A program made the translations under genes and the position numbers. Shown piece by piece: positions 10,126 to 50,271 of a stretch of 53,979 nucleotides of DNA. The DNA comes from Nodosilinea sp. P-1105 (GTDB lineage Bacteria > Cyanobacteriota > Cyanobacteriia > Phormidesmidales > Phormidesmidaceae), in contig NZ_SMDQ01000038.1 in assembly GCF_012911975.1 (NCBI RefSeq), positions 1-53,979 of the forward strand, given 5' to 3'. The notes under the pieces were generated by a model. That model had not been told where the DNA came from and made no database searches. It saw only the letters and a program-made list of their open reading frames with translations. Position 1 is the stretch's first letter. Each line of letters begins with the position of its first letter.

Positions 10126-11688
10126 CTAGGGGCAAAACAGCTCGCCCTCAGCCAGCCCGGTATCGGCCCCTGAACCCTCCGCTAATAGCGAGGGCCAGGG
10201 CCACACCCGTACCAGGGTGGAGCCACTGACACTGCCGACTTGAGTACCATCAGCATTAAACCTGACCCGTTGCACCGGAGCCAGATGGGAAATGCAGCCC
10301 ACTTCTTGGCCCACCATGTCCCAGATGCGTAGGGTCTGGTCGTCGCTACCGGTGAGGATGTGTTGCCCATCAGGGCTAAAGGTGAGGCTGCCAATGGGTC
10401 GGTTGTGCCGAATTTGGGGAGGTTGCCGCATTGGGGATTCCAGAATTTCGGCCAGATTCCACAAGCGCACAGTGCCATCTTCACTGGCTGTACCCAGCCA
10501 GCGGCCATCGGGGCTAAAGGCGGTATCGGTTAGCCCAGCGGTGTGCCCGGTCAGAGCCGCTACTTTGGTATAGTCATCGCCGTCGATGGCCCAGATATGC
10601 AAGACACTATCGCGGGTGGCCACGGTCAGCAGGGTTTCGTCGGGGCTAAAGCCCACATCGGCCACATCGGCCACAGTCCCCCAGGCTAAGGCTGTGCCCC
10701 GACTGGGAATATGCCATACTCGCAGGTCAAAGGTTTCGGTGATCGCTGCCACAAACTGCCGGGAGGGGCTAAAGGTAATTTGCCGTGGGTTTTCTTGCCC
10801 CAGCAGGCGAGCTAAGTCTGGGGGCAGGCTGGCTAAACCAAAGGCCAGACTGGTTTCGGTGGTGCCCATGCGAGCTTGTTGTTGACTCAGCAATTGGCTT
10901 TGGGTCAGGGTTTGGCCTTCGACCGCTAGCTGGTGGGCAAAAGCCAGTTTGCTCTGTTGCTCGGCCAGATTACTCTGCTGGATCGCCCGCTGCCGCTGTT
11001 GCCAGGCGATCGCAGCAGCCGCCAAGGCTAGGGCTGCTAGGATGGAAACACTGATGCCGAAACGCCGCAGCCGACGCCGTTGCTGCTGCTGTCGCCGGGT
11101 TTCTGCCTGACGACTGTGGTACACAAAGGACCGCTGCAGGGGGGTGGGGCTGGGGGATTTTTCACTTGCCTCGGCTAGCCAGGTTTCGGTGGTTTCTAGG
11201 TCTTGGCCCCGCAGCAGATAATCTTCGGTCTGATCGTGGGTTTGCCACTCCCGCGATCGCACCAATAGCCGAGTATGAAACTTGACGTAGTCTAGGTCAG
11301 TGTCTAACCCTTCCACGAGGGCCTTGAAGGCGGTATCAAAGTCATCGGTGTGACGAAAATAAAGCCAGTTGTGCCGCCGCAAAACCGCAGGCACCTGTTC
11401 CTGGGCAAATCCATCCCGGTGCACAATCGGCATCAGCCGCTTATGGTGGATCGCGGCGTAGTCCACCTCTTGCAAGCACACTTTTGAAACCAGCGAATCT
11501 GGGCTAATCACAAAAATAAACATGTGTGCGGCTTCGATGCCCGTCTGAATCTCTTGCCACCAATCGGCGGTGAGCGGGATATTGTCCCAATCCACCCAGG
11601 CGTCGTACTGGCTGGCCATCAACGCCTGATGTAGCACTTTCACAAAGTCTTGATCGGTGCGGGAGTAGGAGATGAAGACATCTGACAT
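10126..11688 (-). CDS. TIR domain - transmembrane - WD40 repeat protein
   Basis: The 520-residue protein starts with a TIR domain (about 1-130): DVFISYSRTDQDFV, then a BB-loop-like stretch IPLTADWW and the region VSKVCLQEVDYA, where E74 is the candidate catalytic Glu of NAD-cleaving TIRs. A Gln/Arg-rich stretch leads to a membrane segment (FGISVSILAALALAAAAIAW, about 210-230). A WD40 propeller part follows, with blades such as FSPDGRWLGTASEDGTVRLW and FSPDGQHILTGSDDQTLRIW. Only about five blades are visible, so the propeller may be incomplete. TIR-WD40 proteins are frequent in filamentous cyanobacteria and are thought to sense and signal in defence or cell death; function here is inferred. 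Confidence 0.85.
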   Translation of the reverse strand: MSDVFISYSRTDQDFVKVLHQALMASQYDAWVDWDNIPLTADWWQEIQTGIEAAHMFIFVISPDSLVSKVCLQEVDYAAIHHKRLMPIVHRDGFAQEQVPAVLRRHNWLYFRHTDDFDTAFKALVEGLDTDLDYVKFHTRLLVRSREWQTHDQTEDYLLRGQDLETTETWLAEASEKSPSPTPLQRSFVYHSRQAETRRQQQQRRRLRRFGISVSILAALALAAAAIAWQQRQRAIQQSNLAEQQSKLAFAHQLAVEGQTLTQSQLLSQQQARMGTTETSLAFGLASLPPDLARLLGQENPRQITFSPSRQFVAAITETFDLRVWHIPSRGTALAWGTVADVADVGFSPDETLLTVATRDSVLHIWAIDGDDYTKVAALTGHTAGLTDTAFSPDGRWLGTASEDGTVRLWNLAEILESPMRQPPQIRHNRPIGSLTFSPDGQHILTGSDDQTLRIWDMVGQEVGCISHLAPVQRVRFNADGTQVGSVSGSTLVRVWPWPSLLAEGSGADTGLAEGELFCP

Positions 11689-16316: not shown

Positions 16317-16445
16317 TTAGTCTTGGTCTTTAGTTTTGGCGTTAGACCTGGGCCAGCGAGCCCCCATTTCAGTGGTGGCGGACCACACCAGGTAGAGCAC
16401 CAGTAGGGCAACACCGCCTAAAAATGGAATCAGATCATCGGGCAT
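16317..16445 (-). CDS. Small single-pass membrane protein (42 aa)
   Basis: This short gene starts at ATG 16445, with GAGG 8 bp upstream, 11 bp after the M41-like gene ends. The product begins MPDDLIPFLGGVALLVLYLV, which is one membrane helix, and ends in a basic, polar tail. Size and layout resemble small photosynthetic-complex subunits, but I cannot match it to a known one. Co-transcription with the protease gene is likely from the spacing. Confidence 0.6.
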   Translation of the reverse strand: MPDDLIPFLGGVALLVLYLVWSATTEMGARWPRSNAKTKDQD

Positions 16446-16456
16446 GGCTGCAAACC

Positions 16457-17158
16457 TCAGGAAAGCGTAGCGTCCACCAAGGGGCGATGGTGCTCGATGA
16501 TTTGACGGCAGGTGGCAACTGGAGAGCGGTCTGCCATCGCTAACACCAGGGCGTCAAAGGCTTCGCGATGCTTCTCAATCAACGTTTTGGCTTGTAGGGT
16601 AGCCCAGCGGCGCTTAATCACGCCTTCTGCCGCAGGACGATTGAGGGTATTCCACAGCATGATCAGCGCTCGGGTGTCATCGTCACCCCCGATGGCGTTG
16701 CCGTAGACGAGCTGCTCGGCAGCGGTGCCAGCCATCCACACCTGACAATAGCGATCGATCCACTGGGGGGTGATTTGGCTGGGTTCCCCCTGGGAATCGA
16801 GGTGGTTGAGCCCAAAAATTACCCCTCCCTGCCCTGGCAGCCCCTGTTTCCAGGCTTCCCAGGTGGTGAGCGTGTAGGCCTCGACCGGGATGTCTAACAG
16901 GACAGCGGTTAAGAAGTGCCCAGCTTCGTGGTGCAGGACCCGCTGACGATGGTCTGGGGACATCCAGGCCAAAGCATCCATTAAAATGTTGCCGATTCGC
17001 CCTTGCAGGCCCAACTGATCCAGGGTGATCATACCGAGGCCCCCAGCGGCGACAGTGGCGACCACCAGTGGTGATAGGTTGACCAATGGCCCCAGCAGGC
17101 TGGCCATGGTCATGACGAAAATGATCACAGCAATGGTGTTGAGGGTGGTGTCGCGCAT
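16457..17158 (-). CDS. M41-like membrane peptidase without an AAA+ domain
   Basis: The 233-residue product has two N-terminal membrane segments (about 8-25 and 29-46) and then a zinc-protease-like core with HHEAGHFLTAVLL; HEAGH lies at 77-81. A downstream acidic run GGDDDTRALIM near 160-170 could supply the third metal ligand, as in FtsH-type M41 peptidases. The AAA+ ATPase module of FtsH is absent. Similar stand-alone proteins occur in cyanobacteria and plant plastids, often annotated as Zn-protease-like. I chose ATG 17158; an upstream TTG at 17170 is also in frame. Substrates are unknown. Confidence 0.75.
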   Translation of the reverse strand: MRDTTLNTIAVIIFVMTMASLLGPLVNLSPLVVATVAAGGLGMITLDQLGLQGRIGNILMDALAWMSPDHRQRVLHHEAGHFLTAVLLDIPVEAYTLTTWEAWKQGLPGQGGVIFGLNHLDSQGEPSQITPQWIDRYCQVWMAGTAAEQLVYGNAIGGDDDTRALIMLWNTLNRPAAEGVIKRRWATLQAKTLIEKHREAFDALVLAMADRSPVATCRQIIEHHRPLVDATLS

Positions 17159-17484
17159 GCAATCAGTCAAGGTGAACAGTTACTTGGGTTGAGCCGTAGC
17201 CGATACTTGGCGCTGTGGTACTTAGCGCTGCATTATGCTCAATCATGGAGGCGCTTTAGCAGCATGTCCCTGCCTAGTCGCCCTATAAACAACGTTGTCT
17301 TATGGTAGCAGTATGCCAGCTGAGGGGCATGAACCCCAGGGTTTGGCCGGGGGGCAGGCTCAACTGTGGCCCCAGGGCCATGTCCCAGGGGGTGGGTAAA
17401 ACCCTAATGGAATCATGACGAATCGCAGAGGATTTGGCTGAATATACTTCACTCGCTTGGTTTTATGCCAATCTAGGTAGCTGC
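17159..17484. other. Divergent intergenic region
   Basis: About 325 bp lie between the minus-strand peptidase gene and the plus-strand BrkB-like gene. The region contains a Gly-rich, GGGG-heavy stretch (17330-17400) and an in-frame TTG at 17434 that could extend the BrkB-like protein. Promoters for both genes should be here; I cannot place them. Confidence 0.3.
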
Positions 17485-27236: not shown

Positions 27237-27332
27237 CCTCGACTGCGCTCGGTGGAACCCCCTCGACTGCGCTCGGTGGAACCCCCTCGACTGCGCTCGG
27301 TGGAACCCCCTCGACTGCGCTCGGTGGAACCC
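27237..27332. repeat. Four perfect tandem copies of a 24-bp unit
   Basis: The unit CCTCGACTGCGCTCGGTGGA (+ACCC) is repeated four times without change: 27237-27260, 27261-27284, 27285-27308 and 27309-27332. There are no spacers, so this is not CRISPR. The length is a multiple of three, so an open frame runs through it, but I see no protein signature. Confidence 0.92.
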
Positions 27333-27640
27333 CCTCGGTGGGGTTGGCAGTGGGGGGAGGCTTTTGATGGTGCGATCTAGGGCCGGGAGGCTGCCGTAGA
27401 GTAGATGGCGCACCCGCTCAGGTCGAGGCGGTTGTGGACTGTTGGCAGACAGCGGCAAGTTGGACGCTGCGCCAGCGCCCAGTTCCAGGTATTGCAACAT
27501 CGGTTCTGTGTTCCTCTGTGTTTGCAGTGGACAAGCCCTGCCTACAAGCCCCCAACCAAAAGGGGGTAGGGGTGTTAGGGGTGGGTCCAGGCCAAAAGCT
27601 GCTTGCTTGTGGTCAGCAATGTGCTTTGTCGTGGGCGAAA

Positions 27641-27915
27641 TTGCTCTACAGGCGAACTCACCCACCCCGCCCTTCGGGCACCCCTCCTCGGAGGGGACGG
27701 GACCTCAGAATCCCCTCTTGGGAGGCCTGTGCTGAGCCTGTCGAAGTAGGCAGGGGTGGGTCTGCAAGGCCCTCGGTAATGGGTGGGTTGCTCTACAGGC
27801 GAGATTTACCCACCCCGCCCTGCGGGCACCCCTCCGAGGAGGGGACGACGCATCAGAATCCCCGCTTGGGAGGCCTGTGCTGAGCCTGTCGAAGTAGGCA
27901 GGGGTGGGTCTGCAA
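27641..27915. repeat. Two tandem copies of a 147-bp dispersed repeat
   Basis: Copies start at 27641 and 27788 (TTGCTCTACAGGCGA). Each has CACCCACCCCGCCC, a CCCCTCC/GGAGGGG hairpin, CTTGGGAGGCCTGTGCTGAG and TGTCGAAGTAGGCAGGGGTG. The same unit occurs twice more at 30475-30790, on the far side of the DGR target gene. The four copies therefore flank the DGR locus. No coding function is evident. Confidence 0.85.
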
Positions 27916-27947
27916 AGATTAGCGGGGCCGGTTGAATCTTCGGCGAA

Positions 27948-28021
27948 CCTACCAAAGCAACCGACCCCTGGTTATTTTCGGAGGCTGTCGCCAGCCTCAC
28001 TGAAACAGGTCTGGACTCCCC
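27948..28021 (-). other. Conserved 74-bp element with hairpin, copy 1 (DGR side)
   Basis: This stretch aligns without gaps to 42079-42152 (53 of 74 identical by my count). Its core is a 7-bp stem GAGGCTG/CAGCCTC (27981-27987 and 27992-27998) with a 4-base loop that reads GCGA on the minus strand, a GNRA-type loop. In the other copy the third pair is A-T instead of G-C, a compensatory change. It starts 51 bp downstream of the template repeat. It could be part of a structured RNA or a remnant of coding sequence (minus frame VRLATASENN...LVG). Function unknown. Confidence 0.6.
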
Positions 28022-28070
28022 AACACACGCTCGATGAAATCCCTTTCACCGATTCTGGCCCTAGGGGAGT
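28015..28070. repeat. Inverted repeat beside the template repeat
   Basis: ACTCCCC (28015-28021) and GGGGAGT (28064-28070) bracket 42 bp and end directly at the 3' side of the template repeat (coding sense). On the other side, TCTCA-CCCGT-TGAGA (minus strand, within 28212-28238) forms a small hairpin. Both may fold the template transcript; this is inference. Confidence 0.5.
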
Positions 28071-28071
28071 G

Positions 28072-28192
28072 CTACGCGGGAACCCACACCACCCGAAACC
28101 CAACATTGTCGTCGATGACGTCGCGCGAGAGGCGGTTCCGATTCGCCGAACGGCAGTTATCATGATTGTTGATCCACGAACCGCCGCGCAGC
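28072..28192 (-). other. DGR template repeat (TR)
   Basis: This 121-bp segment is a second copy of the last 121 bp of the TIR-FGE gene (offset 294 bp). Its outer 35 bp at the 3' side are identical to that gene. Thirteen positions differ: 28107, 28109, 28119, 28121, 28131, 28137, 28142, 28143, 28157, 28163, 28166, 28169 and 28173. Eleven of the 13 are A on the coding (minus) strand of this copy; only 28119 (G) and 28131 (C) are not. The copy has 20 coding-strand A, so 11 of 20 A but 2 of 101 other bases differ. It reads GGSWINNHDNCRSANRN in the frame of the gene, with the Asn codons expected of a template, and carries the same stop. It has no start and no complete gene. Confidence 0.92.
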
Positions 28193-28284
28193 TAGGCTGC
28201 CTGCCTCAACGCCAGGTCTCAACGGGTGAGAAGTCTGGCGCACTGCCACTCTACAGCACCCCCGGCAGCAGGGCCAAAATTGCC

Positions 28285-28309
28285 AAAAAAATTTTACGCG
28301 CTTCGCGCG
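28285..28309 (-). terminator. Terminator-like hairpin after the DGR target gene
   Basis: On the minus strand CGCGC-GAA-GCGCG (28309-28297) is followed by TAAAA and seven T (28291-28285). The hairpin is 57 bp beyond the stop codon of the TIR-FGE gene. DGR target sites often have a hairpin downstream of the variable repeat that aids homing, usually closer than this, so it may be a terminator, a homing signal or both. Confidence 0.55.
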
Positions 28310-28365
28310 GAGGGAAAAGATTAAGAAGTGTAAAGAGCAAGAGGGAAAAAGGGTAAAGGGCAACC

Positions 28366-28486
28366 CTACGCGGGAACCCACACCACCCGAAACCCAACAT
28401 GGCCGTCGATGAAGACGCGCGAGAAGCGGTACCGACCCGCCGAACGGCAGATATCAGGAATGCTGAACCACGAACCGCCGCGCAGC
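28366..28486 (-). other. DGR variable repeat (VR)
   Basis: This is the recipient copy, codons 564-603 plus stop of the TIR-FGE gene. Against the template the changes at A positions are Ile to Phe, Asn to Ser, Asn to Ile, His to Pro, Asn to Ile, Asn to Gly (two A), Asn to Tyr, Asp to Val, Asp to Gly and Asn to His; two non-A changes give Leu to Phe and Val to Phe. Invariant residues are the scaffold GGSW, CRSA and GFRVVWVPA, as expected for the ligand-binding face of a C-type-lectin-like fold. The 3' end (35 bp shared with the template) is GC-rich, where the initiation-of-homing signal usually lies. Confidence 0.92.
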
Positions 28487-30177
28487 AGCCTTGGTCCACT
28501 CTCGTCAGAGGATAACCGTGCGCTGCCATCGGTGGGGGCACCCTGATAATTATCGTGCCAGTGGTCTTGGCACCACTCCCACACGTTGCCATGCATGTCG
28601 TGTAGACCAAAGGCATTGGGAGGAAAGCTGCCCACATCCGTAGTTTCTTCTCGAAAAACACCTTTTGGACCTTTTCCGTAGTTCCCTGGATAAGTAATTC
28701 CCGCAATTTCCCGATCGGTACCTCTGTAATTCGCCAAATCTGTTGTGATGGTTGGCCCAAAGTGAAAGGGCGTTGTGGTGCCGGCTCGACAGGCGTATTC
28801 CCACTCGGCTTCGCTGGGCAGGCGATAGGTGCGCCCGGTCTGCTGCGACAGCTTGTCACAAAAAGCCACGGCATCATCCCAAGATACCTGCTCAACCGGG
28901 CGATTCGCCCCCTGAAAGTACGATGGATTGTTGCCTACAACCGCCTCATACTGCGCCTGGGTGACTTGAAGCCGCCCCATAAAAAAACTGGGCACCGTGA
29001 CCGTACGCTGTGGCCCTTCGTTGTCGAATCGCCCCTCTTCTTCCGGTGGTGATCCCATAACAAACTCTCCAGCGGGGATGGCAACCATATCCAGGCCAAT
29101 GCCATTACCCAAGTCTTCGAGAAAGGCACTCACCTGGACCTGATTGCGTTCGGTGATGTTACCTGTGTCATTAACCTTGACAGGTTGAATGACTACGGTA
29201 CTCAAGTCATCCGGGCTGCTTCCTGAAACTGGAGGAAGTTCAGGAGCCGGAGGATCGTTATCGGGTCGTTCTGTAATCAGCGCATGAGTCGCCATCGCCA
29301 AAATCAAGCCTCCTCCCCCCAGGCCTGCAACTTGCAAGACTCGCCGTCGGCCCAGGCCAGTTTGCTCTGGCTGTCTGCTGGCAGCAGTGGCCTCACGCTG
29401 GCGTTGGCGTTCTTCAGCCAACTGCCTCTGGCGTTCTCGTTCTCGGTGTTCCGCTTCGGCCTGCTGCTGTCTCTGTTGCTCAGCGGCTTCTCGGGCTTGA
29501 CGTTCTTGCTCTTGGCGCTCCGCTTCAGCCTGCTGCCGCAGGAGTTCAGCTTCGTAGTCCTGCCTTAACCGTTCCGCTGCTTCCTGTTGCCGCTGCTCTG
29601 CCGCTTTTCGCTGCCGTTCCTGGCTTTCAGCAGCTGCTTGTTGTTGCCTACGTTGTTCGGCGGCTTGCTGCCGTTGGCGCTCGGCCTCTGCCTGGGCTCG
29701 TTCGGTGGCTTGTTGCCGCTCCGCATTCAGGGCATTCACCACCCGGCGAATGCCTTCTTCCACATCAAAAAAAGCTTCAGCCCGTCTATCCCAACTTTCT
29801 ATGGGTTTACCATCCTTGGGCAACACCTGCAGGTGTTTGAAATTGCTATATTTCCAGCTACAGGCTTCCAAAATAATCGGCACCACCCGGGCAGTGCCTT
29901 CGTGGTGCCGCTCTACGGCCCGCTGCATTTCGGTTTCGTAGCAATAGTCTGAGGCCAAAAAGTGGCGGGTAATCAGCAAAAGAACAATGTCGGCCTTTTC
30001 CAGGTTGGCCTTGATCTCCGTGGCCCACTCCGCCCCGGCTTCGATCTGGCGATCTTGCCAGGTGTTAATTTTGCCCTCCCGTTGCAGCAGCTTCAGATGG
30101 TAATTGACCAGCTCATCCTTGAGCCCTTCGTCGCGGTGGGAGTAGGAAATAAATACGTCTAGCGCCTCGCCTGCCAT
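28366..30177 (-). CDS. DGR-diversified TIR - coiled coil - FGE/C-type lectin protein
   Basis: The 603-residue product has four parts. A TIR domain covers about 5-135: DVFISYSHRDEGL, INTWQDRQIEAGAEWA, and SDYCYETEM with E83 as candidate catalytic Glu. A long Gln/Glu/Arg-rich coiled coil covers about 150-270. A hydrophobic segment (RRRVLQVAGLGGGGLILAMA, about 275-295) is preceded by arginines. A formylglycine-generating-enzyme-type domain runs from about 355: MVAIPAGEFVMGSPPEEEG, RPVEQVSWDDAVAFCDKLS, YRLPSEAEWEYACRAGT and GLHDMHGNVWEWCQD. The last 40 codons are the variable repeat. In DGRs this fold serves as a binding scaffold, not as an enzyme. I infer a sensor (variable lectin) coupled to an NAD-consuming effector (TIR). 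Regulation was not seen. Confidence 0.92.
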   Translation of the reverse strand: MAGEALDVFISYSHRDEGLKDELVNYHLKLLQREGKINTWQDRQIEAGAEWATEIKANLEKADIVLLLITRHFLASDYCYETEMQRAVERHHEGTARVVPIILEACSWKYSNFKHLQVLPKDGKPIESWDRRAEAFFDVEEGIRRVVNALNAERQQATERAQAEAERQRQQAAEQRRQQQAAAESQERQRKAAEQRQQEAAERLRQDYEAELLRQQAEAERQEQERQAREAAEQQRQQQAEAEHRERERQRQLAEERQRQREATAASRQPEQTGLGRRRVLQVAGLGGGGLILAMATHALITERPDNDPPAPELPPVSGSSPDDLSTVVIQPVKVNDTGNITERNQVQVSAFLEDLGNGIGLDMVAIPAGEFVMGSPPEEEGRFDNEGPQRTVTVPSFFMGRLQVTQAQYEAVVGNNPSYFQGANRPVEQVSWDDAVAFCDKLSQQTGRTYRLPSEAEWEYACRAGTTTPFHFGPTITTDLANYRGTDREIAGITYPGNYGKGPKGVFREETTDVGSFPPNAFGLHDMHGNVWEWCQDHWHDNYQGAPTDGSARLSSDESGPRLLRGGSWFSIPDICRSAGRYRFSRVFIDGHVGFRVVWVPA

Positions 30178-42037: not shown

Positions 42038-42052
42038 AAACGGGATCAGAAG

Positions 42053-42099
42053 AGAGTCAGCCGGGTCTTTGAGTTGCCCCTACCAACCTGGCTGACTCT
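42053..42099. repeat. Inverted repeat at the edge of the RT fragment
   Basis: AGAGTCAGCCGGG (42053-42065) pairs with CCTGGCTGACTCT (42087-42099) with one mismatch, a 13-bp stem and 21-bp loop. It overlaps the 74-bp element shared with the DGR locus. Confidence 0.75.
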
Positions 42100-42152
42100 G
42101 GGTGATTTTTGGAAGCCGTCACCAGCTTCACAGGAGCAGGGCTGGACTCTTC
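42079..42152 (-). other. Conserved 74-bp element with hairpin, copy 2 (RT side)
   Basis: Aligns without gaps to 27948-28021. The stem reads GAAGCCG (42112-42118) with CAGCTTC (42123-42129), loop TCAC (GTGA on the minus strand, again GNRA-type). The minus-strand stem has a compensatory A-T and one G-T wobble pair. The copy directly follows the truncated RT fragment. This shared element ties the two loci together. Confidence 0.6.
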
Positions 42153-42173
42153 TTTATACGCCTTAGCTATTCT

Positions 42174-42374
42174 CAAGTACTTTTGAATGTCGCACTGAAG
42201 CACGTAACGACTGGAGCGAGCAAAGTCCGTAAACCGCTCTAAGGCTTTGTGGCTGCCTTTACCCACCCGGTTAGCGTAAGAATCGTTGATAAAGCTACGC
42301 TCTATCAGCGGAGCAATCACATTGCATAGGGCATGATGTACCACTCGATCGCGGTAGGGAGCTGCCGAGATCAT
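42174..42374 (-). pseudogene. DGR-type reverse transcriptase, internal fragment
   Basis: The minus frame from 42374 encodes [19 protein letters not shown], then [21 protein letters not shown] and [20 protein letters not shown], ending at CDIQKYL. This matches the N-terminal half of DGR reverse transcriptases ([15 protein letters not shown]...FIxDSYAxRxGKGxHxA...YVLxxDI); the last residues are the start of motif A with its first Asp. Group II intron and retron RTs differ at these motifs (they have RPLGIP/DRVVQ and RPIxxP types). The N-terminus is cut by the IS256-family element whose end lies 6 bp away (42380). Everything after motif A, including YxDD, is gone; downstream sequence is the conserved element instead. 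The gene is dead. Confidence 0.85.
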
Positions 42375-42379
42375 CCGGC

Positions 42380-43322
42380 GAGACTGTTCAGAATTTTGTG
42401 TAAGCGGTCTACAATCCCGATACCTGAGGAGACCGCATTATGCCAAGACGAAAGCAAGAACCCAATCGCGTCGATGACCTGCTCGACGACCTGTTGAGTG
42501 ATTGACCAGAGTCCCGAAGACATTCTCGGCGAGTCTGGCTTGCTGAAACAGCTCACGCAGCGCCTAGTGGAGCGTGCCCTGGCAGGAGAACTCAATCACC
42601 ACCTTAAGACCGAAGCCCTCGCCTCTGCCGATGAGACGGAGGACAAACCACGAAACAGCCGAAATGGGTATTCCGCTAAAACCGTGCAGTCTAAACACGG
42701 GTCGCTAGACTTGTCGATTCCGCGAGATCGTCAGAGCACCTTTGAACCGGTGTTGGTGCCTAAACATCAACGCCGGCTCAGGGGTCTGGATGAGAAGATT
42801 GTGACACTCTATGCCCGGGGTCTCAGCACCCGTGATATCGCCCTGCAACTGGAAGAGTTGTATGGGGCACAGGTATCGGCGTCGCTCATCAGCGAGGTCA
42901 CCGATACCGTCAGTGAAGACGTCAAAGCCTGGCAGAATCGACCCCTCGACGAGCTGTATCCGATTGTTTATCTCGACGCCCTCTACGTCAACATCAAGGT
43001 CGCAGGGCGGGTCAGTAAACGCGCGGTCTACGTCGTGTTGGGGATCAACCGCGAGGGTAGCAAAGATGTCCTTGGGCTCTGGATTGGAGAAGCCGAAGCG
43101 GAAGGGGCCAAATTTTGGCTCAAGGTGATTAAGATCAAAGCCGTCTTCCCTGACGAAGAGTCCGTCTTCAAGTTGATGTATCTGGCCTTGGACAATATTT
43201 CAAAACGATGGACTCGACCCATCAGAAATTGGAAGGCCGCTACCTCACATTTTGCTATCCTGTTCCCAGAACGCTTCAAGCTTTGAACCAAAACCCGCTT
43301 ACACAAAAATTAGATCACTCTC
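42380..43322 (+). mobile_element. IS256-family insertion sequence, defective
   Basis: Terminal inverted repeats of 28 bp are visible: left 42380-42407 begins GAGACTGTTCAG, right 43295-43322 is its complement with about five mismatches, both ending in TTTTGTGTAAGCGG (inner part). Between them is one transposase pseudogene. No 8-9 bp target duplication flanks the ends (CATCCGGC versus ACATTTTC), so one flank was deleted or the insert is rearranged. It interrupts or abuts the RT gene. Confidence 0.88.
42441..43286 (+). pseudogene. IS256-family transposase, frameshifted and internally deleted
   Basis: Reading begins at ATG 42441 (MPRRKQEPNRVDDLLDDLLS), where a TGA stops it at 42503-42505. Removal of one extra A near 42505 restores the family frame (DCQSPEDILGESGLLKQL), so a +1 frameshift is present. 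The second part (RLVERALAGELNHHLKTEA, PRDRQSTFEPVLVPKHQ, IVYLDALYVNIK with the first Asp) continues to EGAKFWLKV, then jumps to IKIKAVFPDEESVFKL, which in intact proteins follows some 110 residues later. The second Asp and the Glu of the DDE triad fall in the deleted part. The element cannot move by itself. Confidence 0.88.
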
Positions 43323-49048: not shown

Positions 49049-50271
49049 TTATCCAGTTCCTCAAACCAATCAAATCCACACTGCTTACAAATTTCCTGCA
49101 AGACCAATTCTGGAATGCCCTGGTCACTCTCCGCCAGAATCTTATCCACGGTCTGATCAATGCCCTGGGTTAGCACCGGGGGCAGGTCACGGTACTGGGC
49201 CACTATCCAGTTCATCAACTCCTGATTGGTAAATTCCTGAAGTTGAGGAGGTTTTATTGGTTTACGGGGATCCCAGTTGGCGTCTAGCTTTTCAACCCAG
49301 GGCAGTTGCCACTGGGCAGCCTTACCAGCGTAGTCGATCAGAAACATCAGCAGTTTGCGATCGCTCTCTCCCAGGCTGGCCATTTGTATGCGCTGAATCA
49401 GGGGTAGCCAAAACTGCTCAATCAGATTTCGCAGGGCAGCCTCTGGCATGGTGTTGACATCGTGCAACACAAAAATCACATCCTGATTCAGCCACCAGCG
49501 ATAGACACCATCGGCCACGGTTGTGGCGGTGATTTCTTGGCTCTTTAGATTTAAGCGTTTACCCATTTCTCGCCAGCAGGCTTCCACATCTCGGCGGCGA
49601 CCGGTGCGACTCAAATCAATGGTTACAACTTTGCTGACCGTTTGCAAGGGCACATATTCCACCACCAGGCGATTCAACAGCCAACGCTGGCCATATTCTG
49701 GCAGGCCATGGATCAAAAAAGCGGCTACCGATTCTGTTGCGATCGCCCGTAAAAACAACTCTGCCTGCTGCTGATATCCCAGCTTCAGCAGAGCCTTGTA
49801 GAGATTGCCCTTAAATACCTGCCGGGCTTCAGTGAGCTCATGAAGGGTGCGCTTGATACCTTGGGCCACATCCAGTAGGGCTTCGTCTCGGTCGAGCCAT
49901 GTGGTAATGGGTTTGGCGTTTTTGGGTAAGGCCTGCAATTTGCTAAAAGGGGCATCTTGCCAATCCACCGGGCGCACAATCACTGGAATCACCCGGGCAT
50001 CCCCGGCCTCATGGCGCTCCATGGCCCGCTGCATTTCTACGTCATAGCAGTAGTCGGAAGCTACAAAGTCAGCACTGACCAACAGCAAAATGATGTCGGC
50101 TTGGTTGAGCCGTTGGTCAATGTCGGCGGCCCATTCGGTTCCGGCTTCGATTTGGCGATCGTACCAAGTATCGATGACACCTCGGCGCTGCAAAATACTG
50201 AGATGCTTGGCCAGGTCATCCCGTAAGTCTTCGTCTTGGTGGGAATAGGAGAAGAAGACTTCAACACCCAT
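49033..50271 (-). CDS. TIR - degenerate P-loop (iSTAND-like) protein
   Basis: The 412-residue product starts with a TIR domain (about 1-145): VEVFFSYSHQDEDLRDDL, DTWYDRQIEAGTEWA and SDYCYDVEM with E79 as candidate catalytic Glu. A second domain (about 150-330) resembles a STAND NTPase without its P-loop: AFLIHGLPEYGQRWLLNRL stands where GxxGxGK(S/T) would be, and DVIFVLHDVN stands for Walker B. This fits an inactive STAND-like module of ternary conflict systems. The C-terminus (PELVLQEICKQCGFDWFEEL) is helical. ATG 50271 follows a GGGAAAC. First gene of the operon. TIR similarity to the DGR target (both have TWxDRQIEAGxEWA and SDYCYxxEMQRAxERH) suggests they are close relatives. Confidence 0.87.
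   Translation of the reverse strand: MGVEVFFSYSHQDEDLRDDLAKHLSILQRRGVIDTWYDRQIEAGTEWAADIDQRLNQADIILLLVSADFVASDYCYDVEMQRAMERHEAGDARVIPVIVRPVDWQDAPFSKLQALPKNAKPITTWLDRDEALLDVAQGIKRTLHELTEARQVFKGNLYKALLKLGYQQQAELFLRAIATESVAAFLIHGLPEYGQRWLLNRLVVEYVPLQTVSKVVTIDLSRTGRRRDVEACWREMGKRLNLKSQEITATTVADGVYRWWLNQDVIFVLHDVNTMPEAALRNLIEQFWLPLIQRIQMASLGESDRKLLMFLIDYAGKAAQWQLPWVEKLDANWDPRKPIKPPQLQEFTNQELMNWIVAQYRDLPPVLTQGIDQTVDKILAESDQGIPELVLQEICKQCGFDWFEELDKWLKY

What the first reader, a model, noticed from the sequence alone, without database searches (positions are those of the whole stretch)
42174..42374. A dead DGR-type reverse transcriptase fragment 14 kb from the template repeat
[18 protein letters not shown] and [17 protein letters not shown] are DGR-RT motifs, not group II or retron motifs. 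The fragment is cut at both ends: by the IS256-family element at 42380 and after motif A. There is no intact RT next to the template. So either an RT elsewhere in the genome serves this target in trans, or the system lost its RT and the current variable repeat is frozen.
Basis: partly seen in the sequence, partly recalled or inferred. Interest (0 to 1): 0.88.

Follow-up and report, generated by a model that had tools for sequence, protein, structure and literature searches.

The report
Hypermutation cassette lacking its own enzyme
A cyanobacterium carries a gene-diversifying cassette (a template and its target) with no copying enzyme beside it; the scrap of enzyme 14 kb away is dead, an intact enzyme sits elsewhere in the genome, and similar enzyme-less cassettes turn up in other cyanobacteria.

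Summary
The fragment is real: window 42174-42377(-) encodes residues 74-141 of a DGR reverse transcriptase (72-75% identical to this genome's intact DGR RT, up to 86% to others). It ends after motif A and runs into a remnant of the RNA tail that follows DGR templates; the rest of the RT and its template repeat (TR) are deleted.

An intact DGR (Avd, RT, TR, two targets, a third on another contig) lies on contig C124. Its TR fits those three targets (no non-A mismatches) but not the window target (10). The window target fits the window TR (11 A, 2 non-A).

The window TR groups with five other template tails that have no RT beside them. Of 150 tails listed from cyanobacterial genomes, 68 have no RT hit within 5 kb; 45 of these have full flanks. 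In nine of ten unlinked pairs from RT-containing genomes, the target matches the RT-less TR, not the RT-linked one.

Best reading: an RT-less DGR diversified in trans, at least until recently. Against: the window TR is adenine-poor, and clean RT-less pairs also occur in genomes without a detected DGR RT. Whether fragment and TR were once one cassette is unresolved.

The parts
42174..42377 (-). Dead DGR reverse transcriptase fragment (residues 74-141 of 361; looser match to 42386 = residue 71); lacks everything after motif A
42040..42180 (-). Remnant of the structured RNA tail that follows DGR templates, joined directly to the RT fragment; TR and rest of RT deleted
   Evidence: covariance-model match 79.4 bits; 85% identity over 47 nt to the C124 tail
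42380..43322 (.). IS256-family deletion derivative: 28-nt inverted repeats 42380-42407 / 43295-43322 (82%), truncated transposase ORF 42498-43286; the only copy found in the genome
28072..28192 (-). Template repeat (TR), 121 nt, 20 adenines
27911..28072 (-). Structured RNA tail of the window TR (97.5% of the consensus pairs kept)
28366..28486 (-). Variable repeat (VR) at the 3' end of the target gene; 13 mismatches to the TR, 11 at TR adenines
28366..30177 (-). Target gene, 603 aa: TIR domain, Q/E/R-rich linker, C-terminal FGE-sulfatase domain

Best explanation
Two things lie in the window. (1) At 42.0-42.4 kb is the relic of a formerly complete DGR: an RT piece up to motif A joined to the tail of its template RNA, truncated upstream at an IS256-type element. 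It makes no functional enzyme. (2) At 27.9-30.2 kb is an RT-less (non-autonomous) DGR cassette: a TIR-FGE target with a VR, followed 173 nt downstream by its own TR and an intact structured RNA tail. The likely route: the tail lets the TR RNA be captured by an RT-Avd complex encoded elsewhere (in this assembly only the one on C124), which makes A-mutated cDNA that homes into the VR. Shown: the anatomy, the adenine-biased TR-VR pair, a single intact DGR RT in the assembly, the conserved tail, and that the VR fits the window TR and not the C124 TR. Inferred: that C124 RT-Avd is the enzyme, and that homing still occurs.
For: Adenine bias of the window pair: 11 of 13 mismatches at the 20 A's of 121 nt (binomial 1.4e-7). 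Three RT hits over the Pfam cut-off in the genome, one of DGR type. The C124 TR fits its own three VRs (17/0, 18/0, and 17/0 with a 3-nt gap; A/non-A) but the window VR only with 10 non-A mismatches over 101 nt; the window TR fits none of those three (12-17 non-A). Tail fold: 29 of 40 pairs with two-sided changes, 0 of 500 shuffles as high; window tail 97.5% paired. The window tail sits in a six-member group (100/92) with no RT found beside any member. TR regions differ between these genomes (window vs MAG.87 77%), yet within CS-180 VR and TR differ at 13 A's and no other site, and within MAG.87 at 7 A's, no other base and one 1-nt gap, which suggests homing after the split. All ten unlinked tails with a repeat partner in genomes with an intact RT were compared with the RT-linked TRs at hand (nine genomes): nine VRs have 0-2 non-A mismatches to the RT-less TR, against 9-18 to RT-linked TRs wherever 67 nt or more aligned; two linked TRs aligned over only 39 and 11 nt; the tenth (G174) has 12 to its own TR. 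In the one-contig genome G145 such a pair (8/0) lies 1.4 Mb from the only DGR RT hit. Trans diversification of incomplete DGR loci is reported in Thiohalocapsa (PMC10907252, passages).
Against: The window pair has 2 non-A mismatches, whereas 73 of 89 RT-linked pairs in genomes with an intact RT have none (2 of 91 repeats with an A share under half dropped). The window TR is adenine-poor (0.396 at codon positions 1-2; 74 RT-linked templates mean 0.545, sd 0.060). Clean RT-less pairs are not significantly commoner in genomes with an intact RT: 9 of 27 versus 9 of 44 tails, Fisher p 0.27; five clean pairs with full flanks lie in genomes without one. Four of the six group members (MAG.87, SIO4C5, CS-180, MO_188) end within about 1.3 kb of the tail on one side, so an adjacent RT there is excluded only by genome-wide searches of draft assemblies. 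The MO_188 tail is fused to its VR, without a separate TR. No match to the target's TIR part appeared in the other 62 family genomes at E 1e-100, so no strain comparison was possible.
Confidence: 0.55

Rival explanations
1. Frozen relic: the window TR-VR pair once had its own adjacent RT (perhaps the one whose fragment is at 42 kb), lost it, and the present VR is fixed and slowly decaying.
For: 2 non-A mismatches and a low-adenine TR. Decayed or collapsed cassettes where no intact DGR RT was found: Halomicronema 3 A/4 non-A, SIO4C5 5/7, VR fused to tail in Calothrix NIES-4101, Komarekiella and MO_188. AU tests do not exclude a clade of fragment and window TR (p 0.70 in the quick tree, where the held tree even scored 31.7 log units better; 0.27 in the careful tree) or of the six plus fragment (p 0.49, 2.2 log units lower). 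Clean pairs in genomes with no RT of any class found (G137, G326) show that a pair can look fresh without an RT in the assembly.
Against: No RT was found beside any of the six members of the window's group, which would need repeated losses, with the contig-end caveat. The fragment's tail has the GAAGAGTCC form common in RT-linked tails, not the GGGAGTCC of the window group, though some RT-linked tails (L023, L047) also have GGGGAGTCC. An intact candidate RT is present in the genome.
Confidence: 0.37
2. The intact C124 TR diversifies the window target directly (ordinary remote target), and the window TR is irrelevant.
For: C124 does appear to serve a remote target on contig C68 (17 A, 0 non-A, plus a 3-nt gap).
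Against: The window VR has 10 non-A mismatches to the C124 TR over 101 nt but 2 over 121 nt to the window TR.
Confidence: 0.02
3. The conserved tail beside RT-less targets has acquired another role (for example a 3'-UTR or regulatory RNA) unrelated to reverse transcription.
For: Tails keep 94% of pairs even in genomes without an intact RT, and in 23 of the 70 unlinked tails classified (window not counted) a target-type ORF runs up to or into the tail.
Against: Separate TRs with adenine-only differences exist in both kinds of genome. The tail search itself favours well-folded hits, so retention is overestimated; pairing is slightly lower than in RT-linked tails (96%; p 0.01).
Confidence: 0.05

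Closest known systems
Degenerate DGR loci of Thiohalocapsa PB-PSB1 (PMC10907252, passages seen)
   Same: Loci with a missing or broken RT, IS/MITE-type damage, diversification best explained by components acting in trans
   Different: There the trans-served VRs of DGR 4 and 5 match the TR of the complete DGR 2; here the RT-less locus has its own, different TR and RNA tail, and similar loci occur in several cyanobacterial families
Remote variable proteins of cyanobacterial DGRs (PMC7517822, passages seen)
   Same: Targets far from the RT, C-type-lectin C-terminus, TIR and caspase-like N-terminal domains, transposases nearby
   Different: Those remote targets were assigned by similarity to the TR of their genome's DGR; here the TR itself is remote. 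The passages I read do not describe RT-less TRs
Partial DGRs listed by MetaCSST (PMC6642488, passages seen)
   Same: TR-VR pairs reported outside intact three-part DGRs
   Different: A detection category; the passages do not present an RT-less lineage with its own conserved RNA

Membership tests
DGR reverse transcriptase (fragment 42174-42377) | Sequence closest to RTs encoded next to DGR template tails | tested here: met
   72-86% aa identity to such RTs; the two other RTs of the genome match the C124 DGR RT at 25-28%. For the fragment, Pfam gives no hit at E 0.1 and NCBIfam only a weak group II hit, 36.9 bits against a cut-off of 300; no DGR-RT model appeared even for the intact RT
DGR reverse transcriptase (fragment 42174-42377) | Full RT domain with the YxDD active-site region | tested here: not met
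   Homology stops at residue 141 of 361; dead
Diversity-generating retroelement (window TR-VR cassette) | TR-VR near-repeat with adenine-specific differences | tested here: met
   11 of 13 mismatches at A, p 1.4e-7
Diversity-generating retroelement (window TR-VR cassette) | VR at the 3' end of a C-type-lectin/FGE-type target | tested here: met
   PF03781 E 2.1e-56, VR covers the last codons
Diversity-generating retroelement (window TR-VR cassette) | RT and Avd encoded in the same cassette | tested here: not met
   In the window only the dead fragment 14 kb away and no Avd match; intact pair on C124
Diversity-generating retroelement (window TR-VR cassette) | Structured template-RNA flank shared with RT-linked DGRs | tested here: met
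   154.1 bits to a model from 28 tails, 16 RT-linked and 12 not, the window's own among them, so it matches partly by construction; a plain DNA search also finds the C124 TR plus tail at 74% over 215 nt
Diversity-generating retroelement (window TR-VR cassette) | Mutagenic homing observed | not testable with these tools
   No reads, RNA data or sister strain with this locus

The most novel reading that the evidence does not exclude
Cyanobacteria carry long-lived non-autonomous DGRs: target plus TR plus a structured 160-nt RNA tail, with no RT, diversified in trans by autonomous DGR enzymes, much as SINEs depend on LINEs. The window cassette is one of them, and DGR surveys anchored on the RT gene would overlook a third to nearly half of the template tails of this class.
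Probability: 0.37. Interest if true: 0.85.

Novelty: new variant of a known kind. Interest (0 to 1): 0.6.

Why it matters
DGR discovery is usually anchored on the RT gene (recalled). If template RNAs without an adjacent RT are as common as seen here (68 of 150 listed tails; 45 with full flanks), many hypervariable receptors and TIR-type proteins in cyanobacteria may have been overlooked, and one enzyme may diversify several independently evolving template-target pairs. A covariance model of the tail gives a way to find them and a direct test of what RT-Avd recognises.

Tried and rejected
Self-templating idea for targets that run straight into the tail: repeated self-copying should deplete adenines in such VRs; it does not (mean 0.265 in 18 versus 0.264 in 112 ordinary VRs, p 0.83; three TR-like N-rich ones were left out of the 21).

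Proof by tree that fragment and window TR come from different lineages: the free trees separate them, but AU tests do not reject a joint clade (p 0.70 with the quick tree, whose free search had missed a tree 31.7 log units better; 0.27 with the careful tree; 0.49 for six plus fragment). Unresolved.

Proof of trans service by co-occurrence with an RT: not significant (p 0.27).

Rfam: no match up to E 1 in 27800-28600. IS boundaries from other copies: only one copy in the genome; I see no matching flanking duplication beside the inverted repeats.

Pattern scan of genome contigs: 12 hits; 4 non-cyanobacterial ones (L078, L082, L084, L086) had no blast support and were set aside as chance.

Left out of counts: 5 of 65 remaining RT-linked loci not fetched. 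The tail listing was cut at 150 tails in 99 of the 104 genomes with a match, and that search used stricter filters. Two long-branch rows were dropped from the careful tree. Repeats with an A share under half were dropped from pair counts: 2 of 91 (RT-linked, intact RT), 5 of 17 (unlinked, no intact RT). 'Intact RT' means an RT hit longer than 950 nt, so genomes with split or broken RT hits count as without.

Corrected on checking: one search printed 8 A for MAG.87, one of which is a 1-nt gap; (7 A, 1 gap) is used.

Full report
Observation. The minus-strand peptide at 42174-42374 is present. It aligns with residues 74-141 of an intact 361-aa DGR RT elsewhere in the genome (75% over 68 aa; 72%, E 4.5e-30) and is up to 86% identical to DGR RTs of other cyanobacteria. 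Upstream it is cut where a 28-nt inverted repeat begins (42380; partner 43295-43322), around a truncated IS256-family transposase, the only copy found in the genome. Downstream it is cut after QCDIQKY; the name motif A is recalled, not from a call. What follows is not random: a covariance model of the DGR template tail matches 42040-42180 at 79.4 bits. A deletion joined the RT to the tail and removed the RT's second half, the TR and the start of the tail. I infer a dead relic.

The genome's DGRs. PF00078 gives three RTs over the cut-off: an RT-Cas1 fusion on C114, an RT on C148 that I did not classify further, and the DGR RT on C124 at 16389-17471. The C124 locus has an Avd (NF033474, E 9.3e-40), a TR and two FGE-type targets. 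Their VRs differ from the TR at 17 and 18 positions, all adenines. A third target on C68 differs at 17 adenines and by a 3-nt gap.

The window cassette. The TR (28072-28192) and VR (28366-28486) differ at 13 positions, 11 of them TR adenines; chance 1.4e-7. The target is a 603-aa TIR-FGE protein. The window VR fits the window TR (11 A, 2 non-A) and not the C124 TR (18 A, 10 non-A). The C124 and C68 VRs fit the C124 TR and not the window TR. There are two separate templates and one intact DGR enzyme in the assembly.

A conserved template tail. Directly after the TR comes a structured RNA of about 160 nt. In 28 sequences (16 RT-linked, 12 not) it has 40 pairs, 29 with changes on both sides; 95.5% of cells pair, against 27-47% when partners are slid, and 0 of 500 shuffles are as high. 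Rfam gave no match up to E 1 in the window stretch searched. The model found tails in 104 of 388 Cyanobacteriia genomes, and the DGR RT query matched 72 of 388 at E 1e-20. Of the 150 tails listed, 82 lie within 5 kb of an RT hit (one being the window fragment itself) and 68 do not, in 61 genomes; 27 of the 68 are in 24 genomes with a long RT hit, 41 in 37 genomes without. 45 of the 68 have at least 5 kb of contig on both sides.

RT-less templates. In the careful tree of 146 tails the window TR falls in a group of six (window, MAG.87, MO_188.B28, SIO4C5, Halomicronema CCY15110, Oscillatoria CS-180; support 100/92), with no RT found beside any. Only the window and Halomicronema have several kb on both sides; the other four are close to a contig end on one side. 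The RT-less label needs 32 changes against 48.4 in shuffles (0 of 500 as low), so it is clustered but changed many times. Of ten genomes with such tails searched whole, a full-length DGR RT was found in three (G000, G051, Oculatellaceae Prado106); SIO4C5 has only a fragment.

Active or frozen? For trans service: of the ten unlinked tails with a repeat partner in genomes with an intact RT, nine have 0-2 non-A mismatches to their RT-less TR and 9-18 to the RT-linked TRs wherever 67 nt or more aligned; the exception is G174, with 12. Unlinked templates in such genomes keep more adenines than those in genomes without (0.523 in 12 versus 0.460 in 16, window not counted, p 0.023). Against: the window TR itself is low (0.396) and has 2 non-A mismatches, and clean pairs occur also in genomes without an intact DGR RT (9 of 44 tails versus 9 of 27, p 0.27). 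Seven of 20 such genomes examined have no RT of any class at E 0.001. Either RTs come and go quickly, or some are missing from assemblies. Decayed and collapsed cassettes are also seen, and the MAG.87 VR has a 1-nt gap to its TR.

Fragment and window TR. The fragment tail has the GAAGAGTCC form; the window group has GGGAGTCC paired with CACTCCC. The first form is common but not universal among RT-linked tails. The fragment's nearest rows in the trees are RT-linked tails, yet the AU tests do not exclude a common clade. That the fragment is the lost RT of this template is neither shown nor excluded.

Literature. Passages of PMC10907252 report degenerate DGR loci and trans activity in Thiohalocapsa; passages of PMC7517822 report remote targets in cyanobacteria; passages of PMC6642488 list partial DGRs; passages of PMC12691664 report a highly expressed template RNA in Nostoc punctiforme. 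PMC8144416, PMC12875486 and PMC8867640 were searched for passages only. The Nature 2025 paper on DGR RNA and the Trichodesmium transcriptome paper are not held. In the listings (one search listed none) I saw no title or abstract start that describes an RT-less template lineage; these cover only the held library.

Odds. On checking the calls I lowered the best explanation from 0.60 to 0.55 and the novel reading from 0.40 to 0.37, because four of the six group members lie near contig ends and the MAG.87 pair has a gap.

Noticed in passing
L139, L080, L087, L088, L173, L176, L190 and others: In 23 of 70 unlinked tails classified a target-type ORF runs up to or into the template tail with no separate TR found, perhaps from recombination between the VR and TR direct repeats. 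Adenines in these VRs are not depleted.
   Followed up: partly
L154 (G174), L171 (G230): Asparagine-rich, TR-like sequence sits in frame at the C-terminus of a long FGE-motif ORF, so the template itself seems to be coding there.
   Followed up: no
L001 1315-3282 (contig C114): RT-Cas1 fusion protein in the same genome.
   Followed up: no
L002 (contig C148): An RT split over two ORFs, with one internal TGA in the Pfam match; class not tested.
   Followed up: no
window 49819-50265 and 11350-11682 (-): Two further stretches 54% and 30% identical to the TIR part of the diversified target.
   Followed up: no
L011 / contig C68:91318-91427: Remote target of the C124 DGR; the ORF part upstream of the FGE domain looks caspase-like (impression from the translation, not tested); VR has a 3-nt gap to the TR near the conserved end.
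   Followed up: partly
window 27240-27340: Short tandem repeat of a 24-bp unit downstream of the template region, seen in the sequence.
   Followed up: no
L070 (G031): The VR of the RT-less cassette in this genome has a 1-nt gap to its TR, so its target is frameshifted there or the assembly has an error.
   Followed up: no
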